Positions 1-52,885 of a DNA stretch of 64,000 bases are shown piece after piece. Position 1 is the stretch's first letter. Each line of letters begins with the position of its first letter. Origin of the DNA: Glandiceps talaboti (taxonomy: Eukaryota > Hemichordata > Enteropneusta > Spengelidae); the NCBI RefSeq assembly GCF_964340395.1, contig NC_135564.1, positions 7,136,361 through 7,200,360 of the forward strand, in the 5' to 3' direction. Position numbers and translations under genes: made by a program. A model generated the notes under the pieces. It saw only the letters and a program-made list of their open reading frames with translations. It was not told the origin of the DNA and did no database searches.

Positions 1-4439
<4,439 letters not shown>

Positions 4440-6464: not shown

Positions 6465-6958
6465 CTGTCACTATAAATTTGTATCTAAAACCTTTACTAG
6501 TATTTCAACTGATATGACGTATCGCGATATTAGAAACTGTCACTGCGCAGAAATATTACAAATGTACGACTGATGACCTGCCGAAGGACAATTCAGTGTG
6601 ACGTACATACCTCTTTATCGATTACTCATTACGTAATGCTAGATCCTACATACACCTTCCTCGAGTCTGTGCACACACACTGACGTCACAAGTGTTTATG
6701 TTTCGATTCAGTAGCTAGGGGATCAGAAGACATTTTCATTGACCCCTCAGCTGCACAACGAAAGTTACTATAGCGACATACGTAAACACCGGCATAAACA
6801 CATGTAAATCGGAATATGGTGTCAATTTTACATCATTGATTTTAATCACGGGGCTCTAAATTTAGAAAGCCTTTTGTCAGTCGAGTTGAATAGCAGAATT
6901 TCCGACTCAAACGCGGTTGTCGAGTTTCAGGACTGGTGGACCCGAAGAAAGCGGCAAA

Positions 6959-7000
6959 ATGTCGGAAACTGTGAGAGTGGCGGTGCGAGTACGACCTTTC
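6959..7000 (+). CDS. KIF28: KIF28 exon 1 (start)
   Basis: Encodes [14 protein letters not shown], the first beta strand of a kinesin motor. It ends in phase 0 directly before ATATCCTTTT, a U12 AT-AC donor; no GT donor would keep the motor sequence. Confidence 0.93.
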
Positions 7001-8367
7001 ATATCCTTTTCCACGTTGAATTTACGGGTACAGTAGTGGTAAACCAGTCAGTTTTATTACATTGCTTGGTACGTAGATATGGCTGTATGACAGCTACAGT
7101 ACCTCAAGTTTTTTATTAGGCCTGACTGTGCGATCATTTTGAGTAACGTTACGATAGGAGTGTTGCAGGCCAATGTTTGTATATATTGACTGCGTCGATG
7201 ACAGCCAGTTGTAACTTAGCCTTGATCATTCAAATTTTACCTGTAGCCTACCAACTATCATGGAAGTACCAACCATGACGTGGTGGTACTTCTTCCATGC
7301 TTCTATACTATAGTCCATGCATTAAGATTTATATTGATATGGTTTAAATGTTACAGCTCTATCAAATTTTATGCTTGACATAATGATAATTTCAAGAGTG
7401 GCAGTATCACTTCCCCAAATCTCGTCAAAATCGAAGGTCATGAACTTGACCTAGTATAGTGTTTTAGACAGACGAGTTGTATGATCGACCTGTATACATG
7501 TATTAGCCGTGTTCTTGAAAGCACTGCTCTCAATTTTTTTTTTACAATTAGCACGACAGAAATTATAACAATACAATAGGAAATCAAGGCAACACTGATT
7601 ATGAACAAACATCTCAAGTTCAAACAAGTAAAAGAATAATATTACTAGCCTGCATTTGACATTTTTTTTGAGTTTGCTCAAGTTCAAACAAGTAAAAGAA
7701 TAATATTACTAGCCTGCATTTGACATTTTTTTTGATTTTGCAATAATTGTACTTCTTAATTGTCGTTTCATTCAAAGTAAATGCATCTTGTCGTCCTGTG
7801 TTGCTAATTACAAATTATATAACAGGTGACTGCATGTATGTAGTGAAAGTGAACACTGTTGTATGTATTTTTTTAAAACTGAGTTGGCCAATGTTATTTA
7901 TGTAAATAATTGATTGAATAATTCAATAATATTAGAGAAAGATTAAATCCATAATAAAAATTGGCTTGAGAGCATTTTAAAAATTTATACGTAACATGTT
8001 TTGTTGAATGACATAATGACATACCAATAATTTTAATATTATACTGGAAAGCATTTTACTTTTGTGAGTGACTTTTAACAGCCTGAAAGATCCTGGTATT
8101 GTTTCTACAAATGTAATTTACTCACCAAAGTACCGTTAAAGTAGTCTTGATGCCAACGTGTTATTGAGTCATATCTCGAACCCCAGTTGGGTAAAGACAT
8201 CTTCAGATTCAAACCCAATCAATGGGATGTCTCTAGACTAACCAAAGTACACGTAGTCAGTGGTCACATAAACGGACCAACGACTGGACCTTTTAGACTT
8301 CACCTTTAAATGTTCTATCTTATTCTATTTGGAGCATTCTTCATTACACAACTATGCCACCTGTGGG

Positions 8368-8402
<35 letters not shown>

Positions 8403-11400
8403 AATAACAAGAAGAGTTTTACACTGTCCTCATTTGGCCTCAATGTGGGTGTTTGTGCCTTGGAATCGTTGTTATCTGCCCAGTGCCCTTCTCTTAGTCA
8501 TGGTGGGCATGCAGAGTACATTTACCATCAGATTTCTGAATGCAAACACTTGTATTAGGGCAGTTTTAATCAACACCTTTGCAGTCATCATCTGGGTAAT
8601 GTATTTCATATTCTTTGTCAATTGTTTTTGTAAGGTTTGGATACCCTGGTAACAGAGGGTGGAATTGTGGTAAAATTTGTGTACCTTTCATACTACATTG
8701 TATTTACAACATTTTGATGGGAAGTACCTGTTAAAATACCTGTGAGATTAATGGAGAACTGAGATAGATTTTCTTTGTCAGTGATTTTACCTACTGACCA
8801 CTCTGACAAATAGTTGTATACTTAAAGCTGAGCTAGCTGCAAATGAAACTTATTTTGAAACTGGTTTATTAGATATAATGACTTATTCATAATATTGTAT
8901 ACCCTGAACAGTATTGAATCACCTGTGGGTAAATGTATTGGTGTAGCTATGTACATACAATAAATTTAATCAAATTGATTTTTGGGTCTGCACCCAATAA
9001 TCGATGACCCAATGTACTGTACTATTTCTTGATGCAACCAACCTCCTAATTAACATACAATGTCTAATTATTGGAATTTCATACAGTGAATATATTGCTG
9101 GTTGATCGAAAAAATGCTAGTCAAGACTAAGTCTAAAAGCAGTGAAATAAATTAGACTATGTTCTATATTAAGACTTCAAAATGCTGAATTTGATAGTCA
9201 ATATTTACAATTACTTTTAAAATGTCTAGCTGAATACTTATGTTAAATTTTACCTAGAATTTATAGATATGTCAGCACACCGGTGTCAAAAATGACAATA
9301 CTTGTATGATTAATATACATGTACATGACTACTAGAGGTGACATGTCAATAACATAATTCAATAATCCATTTTACAAAAAAGGTTATGTTTAGTCACAAC
9401 CAGAAACTGAATACCTTCTGCTGAGATAATGATATGAAATAGGCCTTTCCAAAATTTGCCATGGTGGCGCCCTACTTCCTGTCTCTGTGTACCTAGGGGG
9501 TATACATGGTATACAGGTTACTTAGTTATTAATAGAGCACTGCTGCTTTCTTCAATGTCTGAATAATATGAAAAACATCCCTGATTTACACTTCTACAGA
9601 ATACCAAGGGACAAAGCTCTTAAGAAATGGTACTATGAGGTGATGATACCCCCAATTTGAGCGAGGGCGCTGTATTCTCAATTTAAAAAAAAAATTTCTT
9701 GTCTTGACAAGAGTATCAAGACAAAGAGATTCTTGTAAATGTGATGTCATCACACAAGAGGTTTTCCCATAAACCCTTGCAGGATATCCCTCAAAAAATT
9801 GAACACATGTCAAGAACAGTAGAGCTTTATTGCAAAATTGGAGTAAGTTTTAATAAGTTACCATAATACCATTTTATCACATAAAATCATCATAAGGTGA
9901 AAACAGTAATCAATACTGCATGTGCTAATGCAGAAATAAATCTATCTGGCCTTTTTTTTCAGTTGATAACTTCTGAACTTTCTACACTATAAAACATTTA
10001 CTGTAGTATTAGTGTTTATTGCTGTAAATGATTTGCAGTAACTATACTATTTGTGTTAATGAAGGAGATGACTGCTACTGTACATGTACATATAACATGA
10101 TAATAAATACAAGTTGAACCCATAACCTATCCATGTATATCAATTATGCAAGTTTCTCCCCCAAGATAGTGAAACCTAATAATGGTTGCCCTTCTCAGAG
10201 CATTGATAAATATGTTGATTTGGTAATTCAATAGTCTTGTTTCTCCGAGCGGCATCGACATTGTCATTCATTTTCCAAAACGTTGTAATCTGGGTATCTG
10301 AAATCTAATGAAACCACCCACACAAAGACGTAAGTACACTTGACTGGCATGTGTTTTACATACGCTGCAGGTAATTTTGGTGTACCCTTACTTATAAATA
10401 CATGTACTTCTTCATAGGAAAATAAGTTTGACCCTGTCGAACAACGCAGGTTTTCCGTGGATACTCTGCTTTCCTCCTGCTTCAACAACACTAGGGCACT
10501 TGGACACTGCTCTTGTGGTGACCATTAAACAGATTTGAAATTTATTCTGACAAACAAGGATTATTATTAATAGTTCAGCAGTGTTGCAGCCAGACGGGGT
10601 TTTTGGGTCATTTGACACACATTTTTTGGACCTGACACACAATTTTGGAAGTGATGGATCATAAATGACCCACTCTAAAATTGTATGCGAATATGTTTAG
10701 CAACATGACCACGCCTATAGCAACAGCCAAATGATTGCGTATATTGCATAGATAACAACAGGGTTGGATAGGCAACTGCATAATCATTCAGCAAATATCT
10801 AGCATGGATCAGTATATGGGTAAATATTTTTAAAACAGTACAGTTGTGCTACAATGCCATTGGCACTTTTCTATAATGTCCCCCAAAAAATTATGATGAC
10901 CCAGAGAAATGAAAGTCTTTGGGACACAATGTCCCACCCTTCAAAAGGCTGGCTGCAACACTGCAGTTGCTTTCAAAATAATATTCATTTTCTATAGCTC
11001 AAAAGTTAACAATGATTTTGAAGAAAGAAACACAACAATGACAGAGACAGAATTAAACTTAGTGTATAGTTTTGACTCTTGTAATGTTTACATGTATATT
11101 TTGTAAAACCATCACAAAAGCTGAAACTGTAACTCATTTTATTAAAAAAAAGACAAGATTTCATTGAAAACCACATCTTTTAAATGCTTGTTTTACAGTT
11201 CAAAGAGTCACTGATGGTAATAACCAGGTTTTGTTATACGTTTGACCTATTTTTATACTTTGTTCACAAATCAGAATTTCCAGTAAAATTTCAGTAAAAT
11301 GTAATTATTGAGTGAATGACTAGACTGTAAACAAACATAATTACTGTAATTAATTAACATAATTACTGTAAATAGGACAGAGCTCCGCAGCCTCACAATT

Positions 11401-12095
11401 GATGGTGGGACATACTGAAGTTATTTTCACAAGTGATGTGGTGTATACATTGCAGTGCGGCTGTATTTTTTGTGAGCAATAGACAGTAAATATGGTTGAA
11501 CAAAAGTACTGAGAAAATTCAAATATTTGAAGCAATCTGCAGTTTACATAATTTAGGAGTGAATCTTTTTGGATGTATACTATATATATATATATATATA
11601 TATAGCTTAAGGTGATAGGGATTGATAAAAGAAAGAGAGATCACATGTATCTTTCAACATGATATAGGCTGTTGCTATGGCAACTCCAAACATGAAATCT
11701 GTGTTACAAAACAAATAATACAACCAAGTTTAAATATTGTTTTTTTATTTGAAAAATCATATTTTGGATGTTAGTAAATCATTTTCAAGTGTACAAATTT
11801 CGTAAATGATTTTTTTTTAGATATTTTTTTTTTGCAAAAAGAGAACATTGCTTGTTAAATACTGTACACCTGAAAACCTTTGCTAATATAAAGATTTTTA
11901 CTAATTTCACTGGAAAACAAAAAACGCAAAAATAAGTAGTGACTAAAATGCCTTTTTGTACATAAACACAATGTAGCAGTCTGGTAATTAGAGAGTACTG
12001 GTCTTTGAGAACTTGCTGAAGACTGTAAAATCGCAAAATTTTGTAGTAATGAAAATATCTAGGATTACAGTATGGTAGTTTAACTATATTTATAT

Positions 12096-12146
<51 letters not shown>

Positions 12147-13036
12147 TTTGTTTATGTTGCGCCAACTTATTTCAGACAGATGTTGTCTCTGCAGGAAATG
12201 TAAAGTAAACAGAAGAAATATAAAATAAGAAAGAAGATTCTAGCACTAAGTCACAGCAGATTTATAGCTACATGTAAATTATATCAATGTTATCATAAAG
12301 CATATTAATAGTCCACTAAACTACAACTGTACTGGGGCAATATTCAGAACAAATTCAATTACCCATGTCATGACTAAAAGGAAAATAGAAGATATGAATG
12401 ACATTTATTTTTATGTTTTTAAAAGTCCAATTGACTTTATTTTTTGTTTTTATATCAAAGTAAATATTAAAAAAAATCAAAACCAATCAAGAAATAAAAA
12501 AAAATTATAAAAATATAATTGAAAGAACGTCATGTGTCTCATTTTTAGCTGTTTAGTAATGCCCATATCAATATAAATTGTATTATGTCAAAACGTTTCC
12601 TTTTGATAGAATTAAGCTCACTATTGACATTTAGTCATTCAGTTTAAGACAGATGTCTGTAAATGTGTATATTGACTTTAGATATAGAGTCTTATTTAAA
12701 TTCCATTTTCTGTCCTGTGTGTTTTATCGTCATGCATGTTTTATCGTCATGCAACAATTGGTGCAATAATGCTGGGATATTATATTTTAAGTAATTGAAT
12801 ACACACAAGTCGACTGTTATTAAACTTACCGGTAGAATCTATTTAGCAAACATACTGTGAGAGACACAGAGACTGAACAGATGATAAACTACCTTTGAGT
12901 CATACATAACATTGAAATAATTGTTGCTTTAAATAATCATAATTGAGAGGAGATTTAATGTTGGTCAGGTTACAGGGCTTTGTTAAACTCTACATAGAGG
13001 ATAAAGACTGTATGTATGTATGTATGTATGTATGTA

Positions 13037-13115
<79 letters not shown>

Positions 13116-16100
13116 ATGTATGTATGTATAATGTATGTATGTATGTATGTATGTGTGTGTATGTATGTGTATGTGTATGTGGGTGTGATAGGTAGGTATG
13201 TATGTATGCATGTATGTATGTATGTATGTATGTATGTATGTATGTATGTATGTAGGTACTAGGTATGTATGCATTAATTTCCATTTTTGAATATTTGTTT
13301 TACTTAGTCAATTAATTAATTCATAATTTACATATTTATTTGATCTTATCATATTTGATGTATTTGTATTGTCATACTGATAATGTTGAAAGTAAAATCA
13401 TTTACATTATAGTTTTGTGGAGAAAGTAAACTCAACTGTCTTCATGCATCTAATCATGTGTATGTTAGTTGTGTTGACAAAAAGTACATGAGTACATATC
13501 AAATTCATGTTTGATATATCTAATCCAATGAGGTATCTCTTCACTTTCACCATCACAGGTTTTGTTGATTTTATCTGTTTTGTGCATAATTTTATGTTGA
13601 GCTGCGATGTTCATGTAGATATATTGAGTTGTTCTGGCTGTGTGCATTACTGGGACAAGCCATTAAAGAAGCAAGTCCACTTGTTATCAAAGAGTACCAA
13701 TATTTACACATGTGATGATGGGCTCTTACATAACACAAGTAAACAGTGTAGTTCACAGCGTAAGATCATTTCTAAGGAGTGGGTCAATTGAGGCAAACCT
13801 TATCTCCGTCTTATATCAGTTGTTATCAATTTATTAGGCTATTATAAGTAACACTACAAACAGCTTTAGAGATGCAAACAACTTTTATGACACCCGTTTT
13901 CGTCAGGCAAGCCCGCGGGTTTGTTGCACTTGGACCGTTAATGGCTTGTGAATGTCATGGTTGTCATAATCATGGATATTAAGTTGGAGGTTCATTGCAT
14001 TTTTAAAATGTATTTCATAACTTTTTTATGCTGATCATGTGATGTACTTGAACACGTAGACATTTTGAGATGTTACATGTATGATCAACTTATAATATTG
14101 TCATAATAACTCCAGGTTCTCTTGGAAGTTCTTTGCCTTTCTTACATACATTCCTACTTATCACAGTAGTGAACATTGAGACAGTTACATGTATATCTGC
14201 AGTAGATTGTCATAATCACTGGTTTTGTTGTAGGTTCTTTGTATTTTATACGCACATGATTTTGTTAATTCCTTAACTTTTCGTACAATTCTCGTGAGAA
14301 TGCTCGTAATGCTAAAGTGATTATTGGTATGAATGGCAATACAACCACCATTCAGGATCCACAAGCACCAAATGAAGAACCCAAGAAATTTTCATTTGAC
14401 TTCAGTTATTGGTCTCACGACAGTTTCAAAGAATCAGCCACTGGCTACTTAGAACCAACCAGCAAGAAATATGCTGATCAGGTATGTGTTTTGCAATAGC
14501 TACCCTTGTGGTAAAACATTTTTGGTAATTTTGAACTACTGTGGTTTTTGAACTAAATTAACATTTAGCTGCCACTCAAAATAGATATTTTTAAGAGTTT
14601 CTATTTCAGCTAATTTTGAGAATCCTGTGTAATTTCCTGTCTTTGCTAGACTTTCTTTGTACTACTTCTTAGATGACTTTTACTTCTCATCCTTTAGAAA
14701 AGAGTCTTTGAAGATCTTGGAAGAGGAATCCTTGACAATGCTTGGCAGGGATACAACTGTTCCCTATTTGCCTATGGACAGACGGGATCTGGAAAATCCT
14801 ATTCCATTGTTGGATACGGACCAAATAAAGGTATGGAAAACAAAGTGGAGTAATTGAAGGATGTCTAGTTTAGTTTCTAGGTGTTAACATTTTGCGATGA
14901 AAAAACCTCTTTCGGTGATTCTGTCAATGGAAATACGCTTGGTACTACCATATGATAATTCAACTCATACCCTTATTCCATGCCCTGTCATTAACATTAT
15001 TTGTCACTTTTATCATGTGTTTAGGTTACAAATTAAGCTAGGGTACATGTACATAACCTGGAAACTTTTGCTAAAGACTTACCTTTGCTTATTACACTGG
15101 AAAACAAACATGCAAAAATAAGTGGTGACTAAAAAAGCCTCTTTGTACATTAACAGTTCACAAGGCTTAGTAATTCATAAATATTTCGTTTTTGACTTAG
15201 TTGAAGACTGTAAAATTGTACAATTATCTAGTGGCAAAAACATCTAGATTTGAACCATATATTTTGGGCTCAGTGTTCTTTTATAGTCTTGCCATTGTGG
15301 CTGTGCTAAAATCCCTAACCCTAATGTTGCTTGTCTTAATTCTTTTGTCTGGGTTATGAAGTGGGTTTAGGGTATACAATGCATATAGTTTGAGTCAAGG
15401 GGTTTACCTTGTCTTGGCAAGAAATTTATGTGACTAGTAGAATACTAAGATTATTAAGAATGTCATGTTAAGTCATTTTTCACTGTGAGTTTTGAACATT
15501 TCAGTTTCTTTCCACTTTTTGTTTCAATATCAATCTGTTGATAAGTATTACCTAAGATTATTTGCATACTGTTGACCATATTTGGAATCAACATTATTTG
15601 CATACCATTGACCATATTTGGAATCAACATTATTTTTCATCCCATCTAGGTGTCGTACCAATCTTCTGTGAACAAATGTTTATTGGAATAGATAAACAGA
15701 AAGCTGAAGGCACCAAAACAGAATTTGAAGTGGCTTTTAGTATGTTAGAAATTTACAATGAACAGGTCCGTGATTTGCTGAATCCAGCGTCCAATAAGAA
15801 AGGAGGGTTGAAGGTTCGTCAGCATCCCAAGAAAGGCTTCTATGGTAAGCTACCATCTAGGAATTTCACGTTTTATACTATATGGTTATATCACTAAAGG
15901 TAAATGAAAGCACACAGGTTGTACTGAGTGTACATAATTTGAAACATGATCAGAGGAAATTCCATAGACTTGAACAAATCTAAATTCTGTGTACGGTATG
16001 ATGCTTCTAAGAATTAATGGTCTACAGGATACTGGGGTAGTGAAAAAGACTAGCATAGTCTCAGATCCCTCACTACCATGATACACTTTCAAATTTGTAG

Positions 16101-19100
16101 CAATTTTTTTTTATATATTGTGTTATTGCAATTCTTAATAATTGCTCACTTTCATTTACAGTGGAGAGTTTACAGACCAAACCTGTTAATAGTTATAAAG
16201 ACATTGAGAACAGAATGGATGAAGGAACCAGGAACAGAACGGTGGCAGCAACAAATATGAATGCCACAAGCAGGTAATATAGGCTCACACTCTATATGGA
16301 ACATTCTTACCATAGCAATTTGTGAAAATACAGTAAACTTAAGATGCATAAGGGAACTTTTTTGAAATCTCTGTTGCTATTTAGTGGACTATCTTAAACC
16401 TAGTATGTTTGCAATAAACTATACACCTGTTTGGAGTGAAAATCAAACTCTCTTCTTCGTAGAGTGTCTTTGGTCAACGTTTGTTTGTAGAATTGGCAAA
16501 TCTTGTAGTGAGTACTTTAAATGATATATAATAAAAAACAAAAAGTATAAAAATAGACACCTGTGACGTTGAGGGCGCTGTTCACCCATCAAGGCATAGT
16601 TACTTTAGCATAACTAGGCAAATAGTTGTATGTCAAAGAAAACTTTCCATTTCCATTGCAAAGGTCAAAACAATTGCAAATTTGTACCTACAGTTTGGAT
16701 TTGATTACCATAATACTATTATTTTAATGGTACAGAGGCCTTGTAAAAAAAGTAAATTGAGTTCTATGTGACTAAACATAGATGCCTGATTTTTGAAATA
16801 GAAAGAAATTGTCAGTCATCATTTCAGGTACATTGTATTGTGTTTAATTCAGACTCTGGAAGAGGTTATATCTATAATGACACTCATTATTGAAAATATA
16901 TAAATAGATATCGACTTTTGTACTGTAAATTAGTAAATTATTTATCAAATTTACACTCAGCAGTCCATACAAAGAGAGCCTAGAGACTTGTTGTTGGCGT
17001 TGTGAGTTGAGGAAACTCAGTAGAATACAAATCCAGTGATATGTCTTTAGGCTAATACAGAGTGTACTTTTACAGTGAATTTTGGTGTTGATTTAGGACG
17101 CAATTGCTTATATTTGACTTCATGCAAGACTTCTTACTTTACCAACATTCAATGTCTTGCAGTCGTGCCCATACAATAGTTGGCATCATATTCACCCAGA
17201 AATTCAAAAATGAGGCTGGAGCCGAGACTGCTAAAAGTGCTGTGATCAACCTAGTAGATTTAGCTGGTAGTGAACGTGCCGAGTCTACGGGTGCAACTGG
17301 TGACAGACTTAAAGAAGGTGCTGCCATCAATCAGTCTTTGTCCTGTCTTGGAAACGTTATTTCTGCTTTGGCTGATAAAGCTCAGGGTAAAAACGTCAGA
17401 GGTAGGTCAAAGGTTAATTCAAGGTTTTGTACATAATTGTAGATTCATGAATTTTCTAATTTTCTCTATGAGCAAGAGACAGTTGTTGGATTGAAAAGAT
17501 ATATGTATAGTTGATTTGATGATACAGACTGTTGTGTTGTTCAGCCCTATCAGGCATCTAAACCACTACAGTGTGGCTAGTCTGTAAGGTACACCGTGAA
17601 GGGGTGCCCTCACACATCGGTCAACCCCTAGTGTGAGAGGAGGCCGGTGAGGGCAAAATGTTACGACGTATCTTACAGTCTACAGTGTGGCATGAATGTC
17701 ACACCTTGCACTTACAGACTAATTTGCTGAGTGGTCAATTGAAATGAAAATTTTATAGGGAAATTAATATTTTGTAGTTGAAGTTGTCAAGCAAGGAAGG
17801 AAGGAAGGAAGGAAGGGAGGGTGGAAGGAAGGAAGGAAGGAAGGCCATTTCTTCAAAATCTAATACCATCATGTTGTTTTCTTTCTTTTAGTGCCTTTCC
17901 GTGATTCCGTCCTGACTAAACTTCTCAAGAATGCCTTGGGTGGAAACAGTAAAACTATTATGATAGCAGCGTTAAGTCCTGCTGACATCAACTATGAAGA
18001 AACTCTGTCCACTCTCAGATATGGTAAGTTTAGCGTGTAGACTGTAAGGTTCATTGTTGAGGGCGCTATTGAGGAAACTTTGGATTATGAGAATCGATGA
18101 AAGATTCGTTATTTCAAAATTATAGTCATCAATTATATGGCAAAATGTGTGTGATAAGTTTTTGCATCAGTTGTCAAAAGAATACTTGGATACTTGGCAA
18201 TACTTGCATCTCTTCTGTGTATTGATGATACTCTGAAGACACTGACAAGTGCCAATTTATTTTTGTGTGACTGATTGGCTGACTGGCTGATTGGCTGACT
18301 TGCTGATTGGCTGATTGGCTGACTGGCTGATTGGCTGACTCGCTGATTGGCTGACTGGCTAATTGGTTGACTGGCTGATTGGCTTGGCTGAGTGACTGAT
18401 GATTATCTGATTGGCTGATTGGCTGACTGTCTGTCATTTATCTTTTCAGCTGATCGTGCCAAACAGATCAAAACTGCAGCTGTTGTTAATGAAGACCCAA
18501 CAGAGAAGCTAATCAGGGAATTACAGGAAGAAAACGAGAAATTGAAGTTACTAATGACATCTGGTGGCAAGGTATCTTTGAATGACTTAGCAGATGCTGA
18601 AGAATCTGCCGGCATGACAGAAGAAGGTACAAAATCCCGATTTCACATTTAATGTTTCAAACCTTTCGATTTGAAACGTAAAGACAACATGTGAATCTAT
18701 GGTATGAATCCTTTCTCCAGGGATCACATTTTCAGATAAAATAAAGGCAAAAACTGACCAATTTCAGACTGAGATGAGATGTAGAACCCTTTTGATAGCA
18801 TGTACCTATGGGTATAGCTTTTCAATGGGTGTACCCCTCCCATCCCCATCTTAACTGTTTTATGCATTAAACCTGATAAAATTGCAGAATTTTATTTTAA
18901 AAATTGTATCTCGATCATGTTCAATTTGAATCTTCCACTTTTAAGTTGAATGTTAAGGGAAAGTCATGACCTTTGACATGGTTTCATAAACAAAACATTT
19001 TTACATCAAATATGTAGACAGTACTTTCAACAATGTTGACTTACTAGGTATAATTTATTGTCTTTTTTTCTCCTACCCCAACTTTTCTCTCTCCCCCACC

Positions 19101-22100
19101 CACCCACCCACACACACACACAGAAAAGGAAGCTCTAAGGAAAGAGTTAGAGGCTGAGATGCAATCCACTCTAGAAGATAACATGAAAGAGATGGAAGCC
19201 ATGAAACAGTCATGGGAAGAAAAACTAAGAGAAGCCCAGGTAAGATGTCAGTCTAATTCAGGTACAATCGGAATTGTGTTGGAAATCAGGGATAACTTCA
19301 TTTGTTTTTTGGGGCTCAAAATTTGAGTCAAAACAGTTAACATCATCATTATATTCATCGTTTATTTTTAAATCAAACTTAACTTACGCTTGCAATATCT
19401 TTGACTTGTTCAGACAGGGTTTCATTTTATCACTTTTTATTCATTGGATGAGCAAAGAAAATATTGGAGAATGATATGTCCCATTTCAGTTTCATCCTTC
19501 ATGCATACCCTGATATATAGGAAACTGTTTTGCAGTTTGTGTGCTATGATCACAAATTATTTGCTTGCATTTTGAATGTGATAGCACCAACCTGGACATG
19601 TGAGGTGAACTTGTCACTGCGCCCTCTAGTGGTAGGGTTGCATAGCAGCCAATGGCCACCCCAGTGTTTTCTCATGTTTCATATCCGCTAATTTACATAT
19701 GAATGTAATTTTTTGATATGTTGAGCATTTCTTTTGTTTAGATGAAATTATGGGATACAGTCCATATCCTATAACTGTGTAGGGAGAATATTGGTGGGCA
19801 TACTAGCTAACACGAAAGAAATAAGGAATTCTACAATATGTTTTTGTTCGATTTTTGAAAATATTAATGTTTGATATTATTAACAGGCAGCAGCAGCTGC
19901 AGCTGACCAAGCCGAAGAATCGAAGAAGAGTGAGAGAAAAACAACACCACATTTGTATAACTTGAATGTCGATCCTCAACTATCAGGAATGATTGTCCAT
20001 TTATTAAAACCTGGTACTTATAAAGTTGGTAACAACAAGGCAGATCCACCAGCTGATATTGTACTTAGTGGTTTAAGGTAGGTGTTTTAAACATTTTTAA
20101 TATTTTTGTGTCGGAAAATTTAGTCATTGTTTTCCTACTAAACATCCTGCTAAAAACCCAATATTGTAATTTTATATCGTTGTAAGTTCATATGTATGTC
20201 TTTACAGCAATATACACAATGTACTATATACATATTTATTTTGGCGTTTGAAAAATATGGTGCCGTGGAATGGCATTTTAGAACATGTTAGGTACACTTC
20301 AAGTTTGTGGATAGTGCTAGGAAAAAATTAAATGCTCCTTGTAAATAACTCATCTGCCCCCTCCCCCTCTCTCCTCCCCATATTTAGTACAACTGCTGTT
20401 AGCAATTACCTTTCATACAGCCGAGTACAGAAATGTACAAATAGAAAAGTACAAATGAATGCTAACAGAAAACCCTTCCATTTAATAGTTCATAATGTAT
20501 ATAGAATGATAGTGGAAATTCATCCCACAAACAACAAACTTTAAATTTTGCATGTATTCAGCTGAAATAAATAAATCCAGTGTAGATATAAATATGTTCA
20601 CAAGATATCTCTATAAGTATATATCTATAAGTTTTATATTGGAAAATCATTGCAAACATGAGTTGTCTCTGAATCTTATATCAAAAATTCATTTATATAC
20701 TACATTTCAAACTTGAAGAACTTCAAATTTCAGTATAAATTTTCCAGAAAGAAATCCAGACGTCTTGCTCTTGAGTTTATGTGACAAATTTTCTACATAA
20801 AACTTGTTTTCTTAAATTTTACACTGTTCAGACTCAAAGCTGTAGTTTTGTTGTGTGGAATTATCATGGCTCTGTGAAATTTTATGTAATCTTTTCCACT
20901 ACTTCTGGATTTGTGTATGCATACTAAGTAACGTGGATACTATTGTATAAAAGTTTGTATTATTTGATGTACAGGACGTGTAACACTTAGTCATTTTTTT
21001 TTCTTTCCTGACAGTGTTCAGAAGGCCCATGCTACTGTCACAACTGAGGGAGATAATTATTTCATTGAAAGAGCAGCATTAGATGCCAAATTACTGGTGA
21101 ATGGAGAACCAGTCACTGCCAAGGAGAAACTTGAACATAATGACAGGTAACAGCCAAAATTATGTGGATTTTAGAATGAATTCGGATCAACGATTCACAG
21201 TTTTATGGTTCAAAAATCATAAAAATTCTGAAAAGGGACAATATTCTTGAGCGCTCTGAGATTTTATTTAAGCATTATCAGGGGTTCACTAAGTATGTTA
21301 CTAGCAGCTCTGGCAGTAAAATTCAAATAAACATTGCCAAAAATTAAATGTGACTGGTAAATCAGGTATAGAAACAAAACCAAAACAAGGTACAAACGTG
21401 GGTAGAAAACAAAAACAACAAGCTAAGCACTGAAATTTGACAAATTTATGGGTTGCTATTAGTTCATACAACACTTTTTCATGTCTTGTTCTAACTTTGT
21501 TTCTTACTTTGACAGGGTCATGTTTGGAACCAGTCATTTGTATGTCTTCGTTCACCCAAAACAACAACAGGCCAACCCCGCTGCTTACCCTAAAGTTGTC
21601 ACCTATGAAATGGCCCAGGAAGAAATAGCCAAGAATAGTGGTTTTGATATGAATACAGATAAGAAATCAAGTGGTAAGATTTCCCAATGGACCTTTCTGT
21701 AAATATCGCCCTCCAGTGTCACAGTAGGGTAGTAGAATAGTGGTTTGATATGAATTCAAATAAGAAATCATGTGATAAGATTTCTCAATGGACCTCCCAT
21801 AAATATCACATATAAAATAATTACGTTATTTTCCAATATTTTTCTTCATTCAGCCAGAAAATACTCATGACCTACGGGTTGTCACGAAGAAAACTATTGT
21901 GGAATAACATCCAAATGCTTTCAATTTCAGAGGATCTGCTGTTACAAGAAGATTTGGTTGATATGTTACCAGCTGTGGAGGAAGCTAATGCTATTAGTGA
22001 AGAGTTAGACAAGAAAATCACATTTGAAATTGTGGTCATATCACCTAAGGCTCGGGGTCTTGCCTCGGGTAGGACAGAGGTAAGAGAAATTTCTGTAATA

Positions 22101-25100
22101 GGGTTGTCGATGGCCGAGTGGTTAAACCACTTGCCTCTTACCACTGCAGTTGGGGTTTGAACCTATTCAGGGTTTGATTATATTTACCACCAAGTAAGAA
22201 GAATATCGTTCAGTTTGACTACCAAACAACGCAGGTTTTCCCCGGGTACTCTGTTTTTGCTCCTGCATTATCACTGAACCCATGAGGGATGGCCCTCACT
22301 GGACTTCTTGGGAGACAAATGTTTATATAATTAAAGAACTATCCAGTAGCAACAAAGATTATTAATACAAAGCATAATTGCTAATAATGGCCGATGTCTT
22401 GCACAATACAATGGTATCATCTGTACAATTAATGTTTAGCAAAGTTCCATGTGTAATAAATTTAAAATAATTTAAAAGATTTCATCAAATTGATTTAGAT
22501 ATTTTCTTGATATATATTTAAAGTGAAATGCAACATAAAATATGTTGTATTAAAGTGGCCGTATTGGGTATTTATTTTGGCTTTTTAATTTAAACTAATT
22601 TTATCATGGCTTCCTACTTGAAAAATCAATGTGAAACATCATTGACCAAGTCTGTGTTTGTAACTCAGTACATTGCAAAAATGTGTAGAAATTTTGTTAT
22701 TGTACGTACAGTGACAAAGATTTTACACATTTATTAATCTTCTGCAATTTATTGAGTTACAAACACAGACTTGGTCAGTGTTGTTTCACATTGATCTTTC
22801 AAGTAGGAAACCATGATAAAATTAGTTTATAAATAAAAAAATCCAAAATAAATACCCAATCCTCGTCCATATGACCACTTTAATGAAATGACCATTTCTG
22901 AGGCACTTGATGCCTACAATGTAAGAGGTATGAAAACCTTTTCTACAGTAGCTAGCTATTACAAAGATCAATGTAAAAGTAAATATTGTGATTTAAATGT
23001 TGCAAATTGGGAAAAGAGTAACATATGAAGAAAAGAAGAAAACGTATTCTAGTGTAGGTGAGGCAGTTAGTCAGTTATTAAACTTCTCAAAAAATCCTGG
23101 TTTCCATAGTCTTATAAAAACTTTATATTCAAAGATTGGATTTATTAATCTGAATGTACATGACTGGTTGATTTGCTAGGTTTGTGTGAAGATGCGTAAT
23201 ATGGAAAATGGCTTGGAGTTCATCTGGCCAAGAGATAAATTCTTCAGAAGAAAATACATGATGCAAGAAATGTACCAAAATTATCAGGAAGGTGAAGATT
23301 GGCAGTTGCCTGATGTAAGTATGAAAGCTTTGCTGTCATTGGGTATTATGTACTGATGGTAACTATATTCTGATTGGATAAGATATGTAGATATAAGATA
23401 TATATTCTCTGTACTGCTGTGTGCATGTGTTCTTGTGTTATGTGCGCATGTGTGTTTCTATGGTATGTATGTGTGTGTATGTGTGTTTGTTTGTGTGTGC
23501 ATGTACCGGTATGTGTGTATGCGGTACGTATGCGAGTGTGTTTGCATGTGTGCATGTGTATGTATGTATGTATGTATGTATGTATGTATGAATGGTGATA
23601 TGACTATACCGATACGATAGTAATAATCCAAGACTGTGGGGCTCATTCATTTGAGTCTTAAAAAATGTTGGTGATTTGAAAAATATCAAACATTTGATTT
23701 ACAAATAAAACATACAGCTGCCCTAATCTAAAATATTCATCTTGTAACTTATATTTACAGGAGAAAGATCCATTTACAGAACCAGCAGAACTTGAAGTGC
23801 AGATAGGTAGTTGTAATGTGTATTTACAAAGTTTAGCTTACCTGGTAAGTAACTTATAGGCAATTTGATATACATATGACATTGTTGGCAAATAATGTGT
23901 AAAGGAGACATAGGAAGTGAAGGCAGAAAAAACAAAATAATTCAGACCTCAATAATGGAATATAAAAATTGACAATTATCTCATTTTTTACTGAAGAGTT
24001 TTTTAGAATCATGTTATGAGATGAATAGAACTTCTCATGCAATTTCTACTGAGTTTAATCTTTAGAAAATGCATAGTGATTGTATAGGTTGGTTATGGAC
24101 ATCTTTTATCAGTCGCTAAATTTGATTCCAATTCTAGACTATACCTTCTGAGTTATAGTGATTTGTCAGCCAAACATTTTGGTCCATCATTAACCCCAAC
24201 ACACTGTTATAACCAGAATAATATAACAAACTGCATAACTGCAACTGGAACATGGTTTGAAACTATTTTGTTAGAAATGGTGACTTAATTATTCGTAATA
24301 TTGTACATCCTGAACAATATGGAATCACCTGTGGGTATTTGTGTAACTGTACACATAGTATGGTAAAATAATTCAATCAAAACAATTGTTGGGTCTGCAC
24401 CCAAAAATCAGCGCACCAACGTGATAATGATTTCAACCTGTTACAGTAATACATATGGATAAAATTGACCTTATTAACATATACAATGTCTAATTATTGG
24501 TATTTTAACAATTTTCAGTAAATATATATTGTTTGTCTGATTGAATAAATAATACTGCAGTTACAGCTTGTGCAGGTTTTAACCGTGAAATCTGATATCA
24601 TTGTTTTGCCATAGATTGACTTGAAAGAGAGTATGGAAATCACGGACTACAAAGGGAAAGAGCTGGGTATTTTAGAAGTAGAGGCTGCCCCATTAAATGC
24701 TAAAGGCAAGGAGATTACAGACGCTGATGATGTCTTTGTAGAGGATCCCAAAGACCTTGTTGGTGGCAATGTTAGCTTTATTTTGAAACTTCATGCTGCT
24801 AGAGGATTACCTAGCAAATACACAGTAAGTACTTTAAGGGATAATCGCACAATGTCACACAAGCTCAATAAGCAAACTTGGTTCGTTTAGGGGTCTGGTG
24901 TCAATGTGATTGCTGATCTTCATTTTCACACTTCTAACCAAGTTTCGAAAACTTTCACGTCTTCAATGATAAAAGCTTCTGTATTTACTATTGCAATGTT
25001 GATAAGTTTATAAAAGTGTTAATACTTCTACTGTGAGATACAATGCTAGGTTTACGGTACTGTTTTGATGTGTTTACCATCATCTCAGTAAACAGGTTCA

Positions 25101-28100
25101 TAAGGTTGGAACTTCATGTTTACCATCATGTTTTTACATCGCATCGATTGTAGTAGTGTGACCGCTTCAATTTTTATCATGGTTTACATCGTATGTAAAC
25201 GTGTGATGTCACACTTGTGAACGTTTGTTTATGGGAGGTAGTTTAATGCTATTGAAACAGTGATGTAAACATGATGTCATTACCATGTCCTCACATGACT
25301 TGCTGTAAAACTGGAGGTGTAGGTTGTAGTAAATTGAACGAAGTAACCAATTACTATCACCTGTCACTGTGTGATGGATTACTACTGACATGTGCTGTTC
25401 ACCCTTTCACAAACAGACGATTATGTTCTTTTGACTATACGTGGAGAGCGAGATTGTGGAAAATCAAGCCAAACGAACAGCAACTAGACTACAATACATT
25501 GGTCTCTTTCAGCCATATTCCGATCTTAACAGCTTTCCGTATTTCTCACCATCAGGATGTGTATTGCAAGTATTCCTTTTATCTGGACACTGAGGCAACT
25601 GAAACCAAGAAAATTGGTGGTACATCCAACCCCGAATTTGGACACAAGAAAACCTTCAAATACAACCCAGCGACTTCTCAACTGGTCAATTATTTGGCCA
25701 ACAGTATCCTGATGGTTCAGGTTTGGGGAAAACAGAAAGTGGCTGGAGGTAAAACAGGGAAAAAGACAACTAAGGAAATGATGATGTCACGTGCATTGGC
25801 ACAGGGGTCTGGAATTGCTGGCAATGCTGGTGAAAAGGTGAGTAGGAAAGGTGGAATGTTGGAATACTACCAAGAGTATGAATTTGCTATGTAAATGTAC
25901 TCATCGCCTTTATAATGATAGCAACATATCTGCATTCTTTGTTTAGTTCAAGGGGAATGCCATTCTAGGAAATACATGTATTTTCATAACTTTGGGTTCT
26001 GGAGAGTCATTCCATGATTTTCACCTGACTTACTCATTTTACTCATTTGCCAAGAAACACCAAATTGAAACTGTATTTTACCTCTATTGTATTCACACTG
26101 ATCCACCATTGCATCATGGGACTTAGTAAATATACATATTTTTTAGGTGCGCACTGCATGATGGAATATTCATGACTCCTATCATGAATATTCAGTGTGC
26201 ATCTAATAAATATGTATGTCTGCTAATAAGTCCCATGATGCAATGCTGGACCAGTATGAGAACAAGAGAGGTGAAATAGAGTTTTAATTTGATGTTTCTT
26301 GGCAATAGAATAAAATTTATGTGATGTGAAAATCATGAAGTGACTCTCCAGAACCCAAAGTATATGAAAATCTATTTCCTGGAGTGGCATTCCCCTTTCA
26401 ATATGTAGTTACATTTCTGATAGTAAGTAAACCACTTCTTTCTGTTGAGGCCCTTGTACAAACAAACAAACAAACAAACAAAATTAAAAAAGTCAAAAAT
26501 AATAATAATTTACAGAAATGCTAAATGGCCGCAAATACAGAGAGAACATAATTAAACTTGAAAGAGTTAACAAGGGAGACACAATGGGAATTCTATAGCA
26601 TAATACATCATTTTACTAAGTGTAGTAATTCACTTTATAATTACATTGAAGGAAATGAAGTCATTATTGTAAACTATTTTCATTGTGAAAATTGTTAGAA
26701 GATGCTAAGTGTTATCTGAAAAAAAGAAGTGAAAATTATTTTCATAACGATAAATTCTTGAAAAATTACTACAGCATCCCAGTTTGTTATTTTTATTTTG
26801 TATCCAAGTCTTGCATGTGAAAGCAGTGTGTCATGTCAAATGTTCTTTTGGCCTCTATCTGCAATGTTATTGTTATTATCTCTACATTTGATGTATTTTA
26901 TTGAGATGTGTGACCCTTTTCACTTTCCAATATTTTGTCATTGTCTTTTTTGTTCTTGTGTAAATTGAAAGGAAAGCTAATAAACATACAAAGGTATAAA
27001 AAGTGTTGTAACATTTTCTAATAAATTTTACCTATTACCTACAGACTGTGGATACCAATAGAACATTCTACATTTTCCAACTTGCAACACTTAAGAAAAG
27101 ACAAGAGAGGCTGGAAGGAAAAATTGTAAGTAGACAATAATTTATCCTGTTTTTTTTTTCTAAATGAATTTATACTTTACTCAGCATGTGTTATTCATTT
27201 TCAGTCTTGCCTGCACTTTCTAGTTGATGTCTACTTTGTTGTTGATAAGTTGTTGTTACAGGATTGAGAAGTGGTCATGTATATGGTACAGCATTGTTTG
27301 GTGGAATTTCTCCCCACAACTTCCCCATGTTGATGTTAACAAGAGAATTGCACACCTAAAGTTAACTCTGTAACAATTCCAGTCTTATCACCAAGTCAGG
27401 CTGGATCAGTCCAGTTTAAACCAGTTCAGACCACTTTCTCCCAGTTTCACATGCTGGCATATCAACATTGAAAAAACACTGAGAAATGCACTTACACTAT
27501 ATCTGTGATAATGTCAGTGTTAGCACTAAGTCAGGCTGAATCAGTCCAGATTAAACTAGTTCAGACCAGTTTTCCCCACAATTTCACATGCTGGCATATC
27601 AACATTGAAAAAAACAGACAAATGCATGTACACTATAGTATAAGCTTTGTGATAATGTCAGTGTTATTAGTACCAAGTGAGGCTGGATCAGTCCAGTTTA
27701 AACCAGTCCATACCTGTTCTCACAATTCCACATGCTAGTATATCAACTTCGAAAAAACACTGAGAAATGTGCACCTACAGTAATTCTGTAATTTTAGCAT
27801 CAATTTAGGCTTGATCAGTCCAGAATAATCCAGTTCACACCAGATCAGATTTTTTACAATACAAATATTTATATTATGCTTTCAAGCAATCAGGATTTCA
27901 GAACAATACATGTGAATAATATTGTGCGTCTCACATTTCTATAAGATCCTGAAGAATTCTGTTGTTCATTCTTTACATTTATCCTGGGTTTTTTTTCGTG
28001 GTTTTTTTTTTACACAGAATCAATTCAAGAATATGGTAGCTGAGGCTGAAAGATGTAACAAAGCCAGAATACACACCCAGATTGTACAACAAGTATTAAA

Positions 28101-28210
28101 TGCTCAACATCCAAAGATTGCTGAAGCAGCCATTAAAAAGATTAGCAAAGATGACGGGGCAGGAGATCTTAGTAAGTACTGGTACCTTACTATCTATATG
28201 TTTAGTCTTT

Positions 28211-28284
<74 letters not shown>

Positions 28285-50245: not shown

Positions 50246-50697
50246 ACCGTACAGTTCCATTTGAATACAAGCCGTACAGTACCATTTGAATACAAGCCGT
50301 ACAGTACCATTTGAATGCAAGCCGTACAGTTCCATTTGAATACAAGCCGTACAGTTCCATTTGAATAAAAGCCATACAGTCCCATTTGGATACAAGCCGT
50401 ACAGTACCATTTGAATAAAAGCCGTACAGTTCCATTTGAATAAAAGCCATACAGTCCCATTTGAATACAAGCCGTACAGTTCCATTTGAATAAAAGTCGT
50501 ACAGTTCCATTTGAATAAAAGCCGTACAGTTCCATTTGAATACAAGCCGTACAGTACCATTTGAATACAAGCCGTACAGTTCCATTTGAATACAAGCCGT
50601 ACAGTCCCATTTGAATACAAGCCGTACAGTACCATTTGAATACAAGCCGTACAGTTCCATTTGAGTAAAAGCCGTACAGTAGCATTTGAGTAAAAGT
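50246..50697. repeat. 25-bp minisatellite, about 18 copies
   Basis: Unit GCCGTACAGTTCCATTTGAA plus TACAA, with variants at a few fixed sites (TTCC/TACC/TCCC; TACAA/TAAAA). The period 25 is not a multiple of 3, and the minus-strand unit has no stop in any frame, so three long minus-strand frames (up to 269 codons) exist by arithmetic. A 25-residue protein repeat would result, but there is no evidence of expression. Confidence 0.95.
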
Positions 50698-50899: not shown

Positions 50900-51740
50900 T
50901 TCAGTTTACTATAGTGGCCGACCTTTCACTGTCCTTTGTCAGATGAATAATTATATGTCGAGTGGTATGCGTGGAACATCGTGCCCTTCTACCGGAACGA
51001 CTGTAGTATATCAACAAACAGTACTGAGGAATGAAAAATATTCTCAATGACCTCGACGTTGATACTCATTAAGTAATTCCTATCATAATTTAAAATTATT
51101 TGTAAATGTAAACATAAGTCGTCTTTAGATTAGTTGACTATGCTGTACTACAAACCTGGCCGATTTATAGGAAACAACTACTGCCCACTATTTAAATTCG
51201 AGATGTTAGTTACTATCTGTGTCATTACCAATGCGCAGAGTTGCATGTCATGGTATTCCGGTCATTTCACTGATGCGTTGTATTATATGAATATCATATT
51301 CATATAATTTGCATAAACATTATGACAGCATAGACAGTCATTCGCGCGGAGCTGGAGGTATCCACTTAATCTATTAAACTCGTGTGTGAGCAACGGACTG
51401 TTGAGTTTTACACAAAGTCGTTGCGTGTATATGAGTGCATGTCTTCATGTTATCGAACCCAGTGATGTTTTCTCATGATAAACATTCACCCAAGAGATTT
51501 GGTGCAATTAACTGTAGGCTATACATGTGATCTCGACCATATGCTAATGTATGTACACTGATGTTGTGTTGGACGTATCAATTCTGTCGGACCCTCATTA
51601 TTGGCGAAACATCTGATTGTTGCTATGCCCAGACGCGACGTCACACATCACTGAATATACATGTAGCAGGCTGCTGTGTACATACAATATCGAGGAATTT
51701 TCAACATTGTGCAACGAACACCTCCAGTGCAAGGATTACT
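50900..51740. other. Region upstream of the receptor gene, no exon recognised
   Basis: Should hold promoter and 5' UTR of the receptor gene. I see no TATA box, CpG island or conserved block that I can support. Confidence 0.35.
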
Positions 51741-51750
51741 AATACTAATA

Positions 51751-52435
51751 ATGGAAGCTTTTCTGCCGTTTGTTGGTGCATATACTTTGTTGTTGCTTGT
51801 GTCAGAAAGTTATGTTTTCTGTGATGAAATCCGCCTTGCAGTATTTCTTGACAACTCCAGCGATGAATTTTCAACTCCTTACAATTTCGTGCGAGTGATT
51901 CCAGCAATTGAGATAGCACAGGAAAAGATAAATAACAGCTCGGAATTATTACCAAACGATCGAATCAAGTTAATAGTCAAACGGAGCGACTGTCGAGACA
52001 GGCTTGTGAGTACTATTATGGCTACCGATATCCGTTCTTATTGGGAACCTCATGGATTCATCGGACCTGCATGTTGGACTCCTATGGAACTCATTGCAGG
52101 TCTCGCCGGACATTGGAACTTACCCATCGTATCTGGAGCATCTCCCGACTCATATTTAAGTGATAAGATGATTTATCCAACTCTGGTAAGGACTTTCGCG
52201 CCCGTACATCTGGTATCAGGAGCATGCATTGCCTTCTTGGAATACTTAGGTATTGACACCGTGGGAGTTCTTTTCAATTCGATCGATGAGTACACGTACA
52301 TCATTGCATTTTCTATGTACAGAGCCATTGAAGACCATCCGATTGTTTCATATAATGGCATTGACGCCCTAAAAGCATTCAATGAGAATGATATTTTGGA
52401 GAATGTCGTACCGGAAATGACCTCCGTTGCACGAA
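51751..52435 (+). CDS. ANF-receptor-like protein (natriuretic-peptide-receptor/guanylate-cyclase type), first coding exon
   Basis: Encodes 228 residues and ends in phase 1 at GTAAGT (52436). Residues 1-24 form a signal peptide (LPFVGAYTLLLLVS core), then the first lobe of a periplasmic-binding-like ANF receptor domain: IRLAVFLDNSSD, VIPAIEIAQEKIN, C81 and C108 (matching the first NPR disulfide), GFIGPACWTPMELIAGLAGH and WNLPIVSGASPD. The ATG at 51751 is chosen because the hydrophobic core follows at once; an in-frame ATG at 51676 would add 25 residues and bury the signal peptide. Family members are membrane receptors with a kinase-like region and guanylate cyclase, none of which is visible here. 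GABA-B or glutamate receptors share the fold, but the GPxC-HW-LP pattern favours NPR. Beyond 228 codons the frame stops within two codons. Confidence 0.85.
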
Positions 52436-52885
52436 GTAAGTAAAAGTTTCATTAATGGTTAATCTTATCCAAACGTGCTTTATCGTTTTCTTGTTTTTCT
52501 TCTTAACAACAGTTGTCTCTTTCAATCAATCACTAAATGACGAATCAGCAAGTCAATACAACGATCTGCTAGTATAAACAGCGTTTATACAAAAAATTCC
52601 GATTTCTACACTGTGATTACTTTCCTTAATTTGTAATGGAATCCGTCTCCTTAGGATTCGAGTCAAAGGCCAGATGTGGCTTACAACCGTCACAGGTGGG
52701 AGACGTTCAAGTAACTACCATGATGAGTTAAACCAACCCTATACACTCACAATAAAACATTCCCCGACTAACGAAAGGGCAAAGGCTGGGTTTATAGGTT
52801 GACTAGGCGTAATTCATACTGCGTATAATTGTTCAATATATATATGAAAAAAGTAGAATAAAAAAGTACCTTGTGAATAATTATA

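What the first reader, a model, noticed from the sequence alone, without database searches (positions are those of the whole stretch)
7001..14286. Minor-spliceosome AT-AC intron in the kinesin motor, directly after VRVRPF
Seen: ATATCCTTTT at the donor, TTCCTTAAC 10 nt before a terminal AC, no GT-AG alternative, perfect in-frame joining of RPF to NSRE. Known: U12 AT-AC introns are rare (a small fraction of introns) and spliced slowly, so they can limit expression. At 7.3 kb it is also the longest intron of this gene. Standard gene finders that demand GT-AG would miss exon 1 or invent a wrong start.
Basis: partly seen in the sequence, partly recalled or inferred. Interest (0 to 1): 0.75.

Follow-up and report, generated by a model that had tools for sequence, protein, structure and literature searches.

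The report
AT-AC minor-spliceosome intron in kinesin KIF28
The first intron of an acorn-worm kinesin gene carries textbook signals of the rare second splicing machinery, and traces left in other animals' misread KIF28 proteins suggest that the intron is very old, but it is one more member of a known class of introns.

Summary
Exon 1 (6959-7000, [14 protein letters not shown]) joins exon 2 (14287-14481, NSRENAR...) across a 7,286-nt intron with ATATCCTTTT at the donor, TTCCTTAAC at 14269-14277 and a terminal AC. The 20-exon model 6959-29630 translates exactly to a database protein, 'kinesin-like protein KIF28 [Glandiceps talaboti]', an acorn worm. The other 18 introns are GT-AG, 216-1,415 nt. 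No GT-AG pair in the range scanned keeps RPF|NSRE. It is a U12-type AT-AC intron. Indirect evidence goes further. Of 251 homologues examined, 46 start at an internal Met as if exon 1 were lost, and I read 8 as running into the intron. All 8 have Tyr or His before exon 2, as an ...AC end gives and an ...AG end cannot. Of the 5 long enough to test, 4 can encode a perfect U12 branch site 9-12 nt upstream (background 26 of 20,000). The 8 are from molluscs, a prawn, a scorpion, cnidarians and one unnamed source. So the intron is probably ancestral to animal KIF28. Four other kinesin genes of this genome lack it at that site. No RNA or snRNA evidence was available.

The parts
6959..7000 (+). exon 1 coding part, [14 protein letters not shown]; in-frame stop upstream at 6887
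7001..14286 (+). intron 1, AT-AC, U12-type, 7,286 nt, phase 0
7001..7010 (+). U12-type 5' splice site ATATCCTTTT
14269..14277 (+). U12-type branch site TTCCTTAAC; branch A at 14275 or 14276
14285..14286 (+). terminal AC of the intron
14287..14481 (+). exon 2, [10 protein letters not shown]...KKYADQ; stop TAA in its frame at 14266-14268, so it cannot extend far upstream
14698..18626 (+). exons 3-8 (14698-14830, 15650-15844, 16162-16273, 17163-17401, 17892-18023, 18450-18626), with the rest of the motor domain, joined by GT-AG introns
19124..29630 (+). exons 9-20 of KIF28 (FHA, KIF1B and C2 regions among them) to the stop codon, GT-AG introns

Best explanation
Intron 1 of the acorn-worm KIF28 gene is a U12-type AT-AC intron. 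By established knowledge of the class (recalled, and PMC3584512 passages), U11/U12 would recognise ATATCCTTTT and TTCCTTAAC, and U4atac/U6atac/U5 would join RPF to NSRE. It probably descends from an intron already present in KIF28 before cnidarians and bilaterians split. If it is retained, translation stops after 25 codons (shown from sequence). Exon 1 carries the conserved RxRP motif of the motor's nucleotide pocket (role recalled), so active motor depends on this splice (inferred). Shown: sequence, junction, protein match. Inferred: the machinery, the age, any effect on expression.
For: Exact signals and junction. Exact identity of the 20-exon translation with a public G. talaboti KIF28 protein of 986 aa. 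No scanned GT-AG alternative keeps the conserved residues. Read-through N-termini: 8 of 8 end in Y or H before exon 2, and 4 of 5 testable ones can encode TTCCTTRAY exactly (background 26 of 20,000), the fifth with one mismatch (background 318 of 20,000). Minor introns are shared between human and the acorn worm Saccoglossus (127 in the alignments used; passage of PMC10639083), so the phylum has the class.
Against: No RNA read was seen; the public protein may be a prediction, and its evidence I could not see. The minor snRNAs could not be looked for: searches for U12 (RF00007) did not complete. The intron is phase 0, the phase under-represented among U12 introns (passage of PMC7367187). The evidence from other species is from proteins, not DNA; I chose 8 of 16 odd N-termini by eye, and noticed the motif before I tested it.
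Confidence: 0.92

Rival explanations
1. Exon 2 is joined by ordinary GT-AG splicing to another donor or acceptor, and the AT-AC signals are coincidence.
For: Four in-frame GT-AG pairs exist between 6975-7130 and 14200-14345.
Against: All four remove NSRE, and three also remove RPF; the public protein has RPFNSREN. Rough joint chance of the signals about 2e-10.
Confidence: 0.02
2. An alternative promoter inside intron 1 makes a transcript that starts translation in exon 2 (the Met at residue 29), so exon 1 is optional.
For: 46 of 251 homologue entries start at an internal Met.
Against: That Met is simply the first one after RPF in 174 of 179 complete rows, so any pipeline that loses exon 1 lands there. 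The short form lacks the first strand and RxRP motif of the motor (inferred).
Confidence: 0.05
3. The intron has AT-AC ends but is removed by the major (U2) spliceosome, as reported for a few sodium-channel introns.
For: Such introns exist; they have G at position +5 (passage of PMC2831892).
Against: Here +5 is C, and donor and branch site fit the U12 consensus in full.
Confidence: 0.01
4. The intron is real and U12-type, but the read-through peptides in other species are coincidental or independent, so it is not ancestral.
For: Peptide evidence only; of 16 odd N-termini I used 8; P0009 needs one mismatch; one short tree moved P0248.
Against: Same codon junction and 9-12 nt spacing in a bivalve (Potamilus), a prawn, an octocoral and P0248.
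Confidence: 0.1

Closest known systems
U12-type AT-AC introns (minor spliceosome), e.g. the domain I intron shared by Nav and Cav channels (PMC6259924, passages)
   Same: Consensus ATATCCTTT and TTCCTTRAC with AC end; for the channels too the position is reported as shared across distant relatives
   Different: Different gene (kinesin KIF28); 7.3 kb long; no paper on a kinesin U12 intron found in the searches (listings judged by title and abstract start)
KIF28P / KIF28 orthologues of other animals (e.g. Ptychodera flava P0157, Saccoglossus P0156)
   Same: Same kinesin with motor and, in many, FHA and KIF1B regions; same RPF|N junction in P0157
   Different: Intron type in those species not readable here; P0156 and others lack exon 1 in the database

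Membership tests
U12-type intron | 5' splice site RTATCCTT | tested here: met
   8 of 8
U12-type intron | branch site TTCCTTRAY close to the 3' splice site (optimum 11-13 nt, PMC3584512 passage) | tested here: met
   9 of 9; branch A 11 or 12 nt before exon 2
U12-type intron | paired termini AT-AC or GT-AG | tested here: met
   AT at 7001, AC at 14285-14286
U12-type intron | no distinct polypyrimidine tract | tested here: inconclusive
   Only 9 nt (TTTTCGTAC) between motif and exon; not scored
U12-type intron | minor snRNAs in the same genome | not tested
   U12 asked for 8 times and U11, U4atac, U6atac once each; did not complete
U12-type intron | excision shown in RNA | not testable with these tools
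   No reads held; a public protein entry has the spliced junction
KIF28 (kinesin-3) | kinesin motor plus FHA and KIF1B regions, orthologue clade | tested here: met
   Pfam hits in P0155; clade with other animal KIF28, support 100/98

The most novel reading that the evidence does not exclude
This one AT-AC intron predates animals or arose at their base. It was in the KIF28 gene before the duplication that gave two KIF28 clades (P0009 in one clade, the window and P0248 in the other). It has kept AT-AC ends and a near-perfect branch site close to exon 2 ever since, and it is a main cause of the KIF28 database entries without their first motor strand. P0248, an unnamed EukProt entry that branches outside the animal sequences of its clade, would be a retained-intron transcript.
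Probability: 0.45. Interest if true: 0.45.

Novelty: new member of a known kind. Interest (0 to 1): 0.33.

Why it matters
It adds a probably ancient, well-marked AT-AC intron in a motor-protein gene, and a cheap test: misannotated proteins that read into a phase-0 intron betray its class, because ...AC gives Tyr, His, Asn or Asp and ...AG gives Lys, Gln, Glu or stop. It also warns that KIF28 entries without VRVRPF are likely annotation losses, not real short motors.

Tried and rejected
Pattern scans for VRPF followed by ATATCCTT in viral contigs (4 stretches) and prokaryote genomes (29 stretches) gave no kinesin match in any of the 33 loci; three hits in one Endozoicomonas contig are a repeated sequence unlike kinesin. 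The other strict U12 donor and branch words in the window lie outside this gene and I found no exon pair for them; TTCCTTRAY at 1471 lies in the open frame 1360-1578 (FLDP), which I take from memory for aspartyl-tRNA synthetase. No Rfam family reaches its gathering score in the window; one search lists 13 weaker matches, 11 of them microRNA models.

Literature: searches listed 0, 1, 9, 9, 2 and 3 papers; I judged them by title and abstract start and looked into one (PMC4394429, passages: KIF1B is named as host of a microRNA). None is about a U12 intron in a kinesin. In four intron papers (PMC7367187, PMC2831892, PMC10639083, PMC2846911) the one word that I looked for (KIF in the first, kinesin in the other three) does not occur in the main text held. 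Supplements, U12DB and IAOD could not be consulted, so the intron may be listed there.

I first took P0248 for a choanoflagellate from the form of its name; no call shows that. Against it: the choanoflagellate Monosiga brevicollis is reported to lack U12 introns (passage of PMC2846911). I leave P0248 unnamed. A short-alignment tree (225 columns) put P0248 beside an amphioxus sequence (96/85), against the longer trees (630 columns; 998 columns), which put it outside the animal sequences of its clade. Identities of the genes on C11 (like KIF14), C9 and C5 (like kinesin-2) are recalled resemblances.

Full report
What is there. The sequence reads ATG TCG GAA ACT GTG AGA GTG GCG GTG CGA GTA CGA CCT TTC and then ATATCCTTTTCC; 7.3 kb later it reads TTCCTTAAC TTTTCGTAC and then AAT TCT CGT GAG. 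Joined, this gives [24 protein letters not shown]. The start codon has an in-frame stop 72 bases upstream. A stop codon (14266-14268) sits directly before TTCCTTAAC in the exon-2 frame, so exon 2 can extend upstream by six codons at most.

Gene and species. A model of 20 exons over 6959-29630 translates, letter for letter with its stop, to the public protein P0155, 'kinesin-like protein KIF28 [Glandiceps talaboti]', 986 aa. Glandiceps is a spengelid acorn worm. The window lies at C17:7136361-7200360 of an unnamed 590-Mb assembly in 47 contigs. Pfam finds kinesin motor, FHA, KIF1B and C2 regions. Eighteen introns are GT-AG, 216-1,415 nt; intron 1 alone is AT-AC and is 7,286 nt.

Strength of the signals. 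Intron 1 fits RTATCCTT in 8 of 8 and TTCCTTRAY in 9 of 9 positions, with the branch A 11-12 nt from exon 2; the best values among the other 18 introns are 5 of 8 and 7 of 9. The published optimum distance is 11-13 nt (passage of PMC3584512). The words alone are expected by chance in 64 kb; both at one conserved codon junction are not (about 2e-10, a rough product of base frequencies). Four in-frame GT-AG alternatives exist in the range scanned but all break RPF-NSRE.

Traces in other species. Two searches listed their best 120 of 7,955 and of 7,963 proteins, and a third all 31 hits; together 251 different proteins were examined. A script classed 185 as having the RPF|N junction, 46 as starting at an internal Met, 16 as other, 3 as truncated and 1 as without a match. 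The Met used is the first after RPF in 174 of 179 complete rows, so these 46 look like models that lost exon 1. Gastropods, bivalves, annelids, hemichordates, echinoderms, amphioxus, arthropods, Trichoplax and corals are among them (names). That alone does not show intron type, since a short first exon is easily lost.

Of the 16 'other' rows I took 8 as read-throughs from the intron into exon 2: P0009 Pinctada, P0143 Potamilus, P0154 Lottia, P0196 Macrobrachium, P0207 Centruroides, P0220 Nematostella, P0224 Paramuricea and P0248 (unnamed EukProt). The 8 dropped are P0045 and P0046 (unclear, unnamed; Ser and the start Met stand before the aligned site), P0064 and P0116 (start later), P0151 and P0214 (joined inside exon 2), P0182 (unrelated start) and P0199 (only cut short). 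All 8 used have Tyr or His before exon 2; counting P0045 and P0046 too it would be 8 of 10. In background peptides of the window 3,510 of 20,000 end in a residue with an NAC codon. Five of the 8 are long enough to look for a branch site: Potamilus FLNDFH, Paramuricea FLNISH, Macrobrachium FLNSNPH and P0248 SLTDSH can encode TTCCTTRAY exactly, 9-12 nt before the end; Pinctada TLTPGY fits with one mismatch. Background: 26 of 20,000 exact, 318 of 20,000 with one mismatch. The window's own read-through is FLNFSY. I noticed the FLN motif by eye before making the test, so the figures are a guide.

Age. In trees of 43 rows (630 columns) and 29 rows (998 columns) the window's protein, those of octocoral, anemone, arthropods, molluscs and Trichoplax, and P0248 form one clade (100/93 and 100/98), with P0248 outside the others (88/74, 98/94). 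P0009 falls in a second KIF28 group (87/93 and 88/92). A short tree disagreed on P0248 (225 columns). So presence in the ancestor of cnidarians and bilaterians is supported by inference; presence before the KIF28 duplication rests on P0009 and is weaker.

Other kinesins of this genome. A regex scan of 9 of the fetched loci found four first exons. A KIF28-like gene on C2 (grouped with Lottia and Mytilus relatives) has RPFNQ|GTAAGG and ...TTTTTACAG|AGAGAG, a GT-AG junction 6 nt downstream; a gene on C11 has a GT-AG junction 8 nt downstream (the pairing of these exons is inferred from order on the contig). Two further kinesins, on C9 and C5, run through the site without an intron. KIF1, KIF13 and KIF16 were not found. 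Whether the shifted GT-AG introns descend from the AT-AC one is open; conversion with a shift of the site has been reported between two nematodes (passage of PMC2846911).

Literature seen. Passages only of PMC7367187, PMC2831892, PMC3584512, PMC2846911, PMC10639083, PMC6259924 and PMC4394429. They say that AT-AC is about a quarter of human U12 introns, that loss is commoner than conversion, that conversion is rarer for AT-AC, that phase 0 is under-represented, and that U12 splicing is slower. No paper on a kinesin U12 intron was found in the searches.

Mechanism and limits. That the minor spliceosome removes this intron follows from the class, not from a test here. Retention would give a 25-residue peptide. 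No RNA evidence was at hand and no snRNA search of the genome was answered.

Noticed in passing
window 51667-52443 +: Open frame with a receptor-family ligand-binding (ANF_receptor) match, E 6.5e-19, probably an exon of a receptor gene.
   Followed up: no
window 1360-4439 +: Open frames that look like the end of an aspartyl-tRNA synthetase gene (name recalled; PF00152 match at 4209-4439), same strand, about 2.5 kb upstream of KIF28.
   Followed up: no
window 50247-50696: Minisatellite of 18 copies of a 25-nt unit, 92% matches.
   Followed up: no
own genome C22, C23, C9, C11, C18, C5, C12, C2: Many kinesin-motor fragments covering profile positions about 245-320, several in clusters spaced about 1.8-2.1 kb (e.g. 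C23:19036435-19042650), as if a kinesin piece had been amplified in tandem or carried by a repeat.
   Followed up: no
L062/L074 (C2) and L067/L077 (C11): Two other kinesin genes have GT-AG introns 6 and 8 nt downstream of the AT-AC position of KIF28, a possible case of intron sliding or of separate gains.
   Followed up: partly
P0248 (EukProt): KIF28 orthologue whose N-terminus reads like a retained U12 intron; source organism unnamed here.
   Followed up: partly
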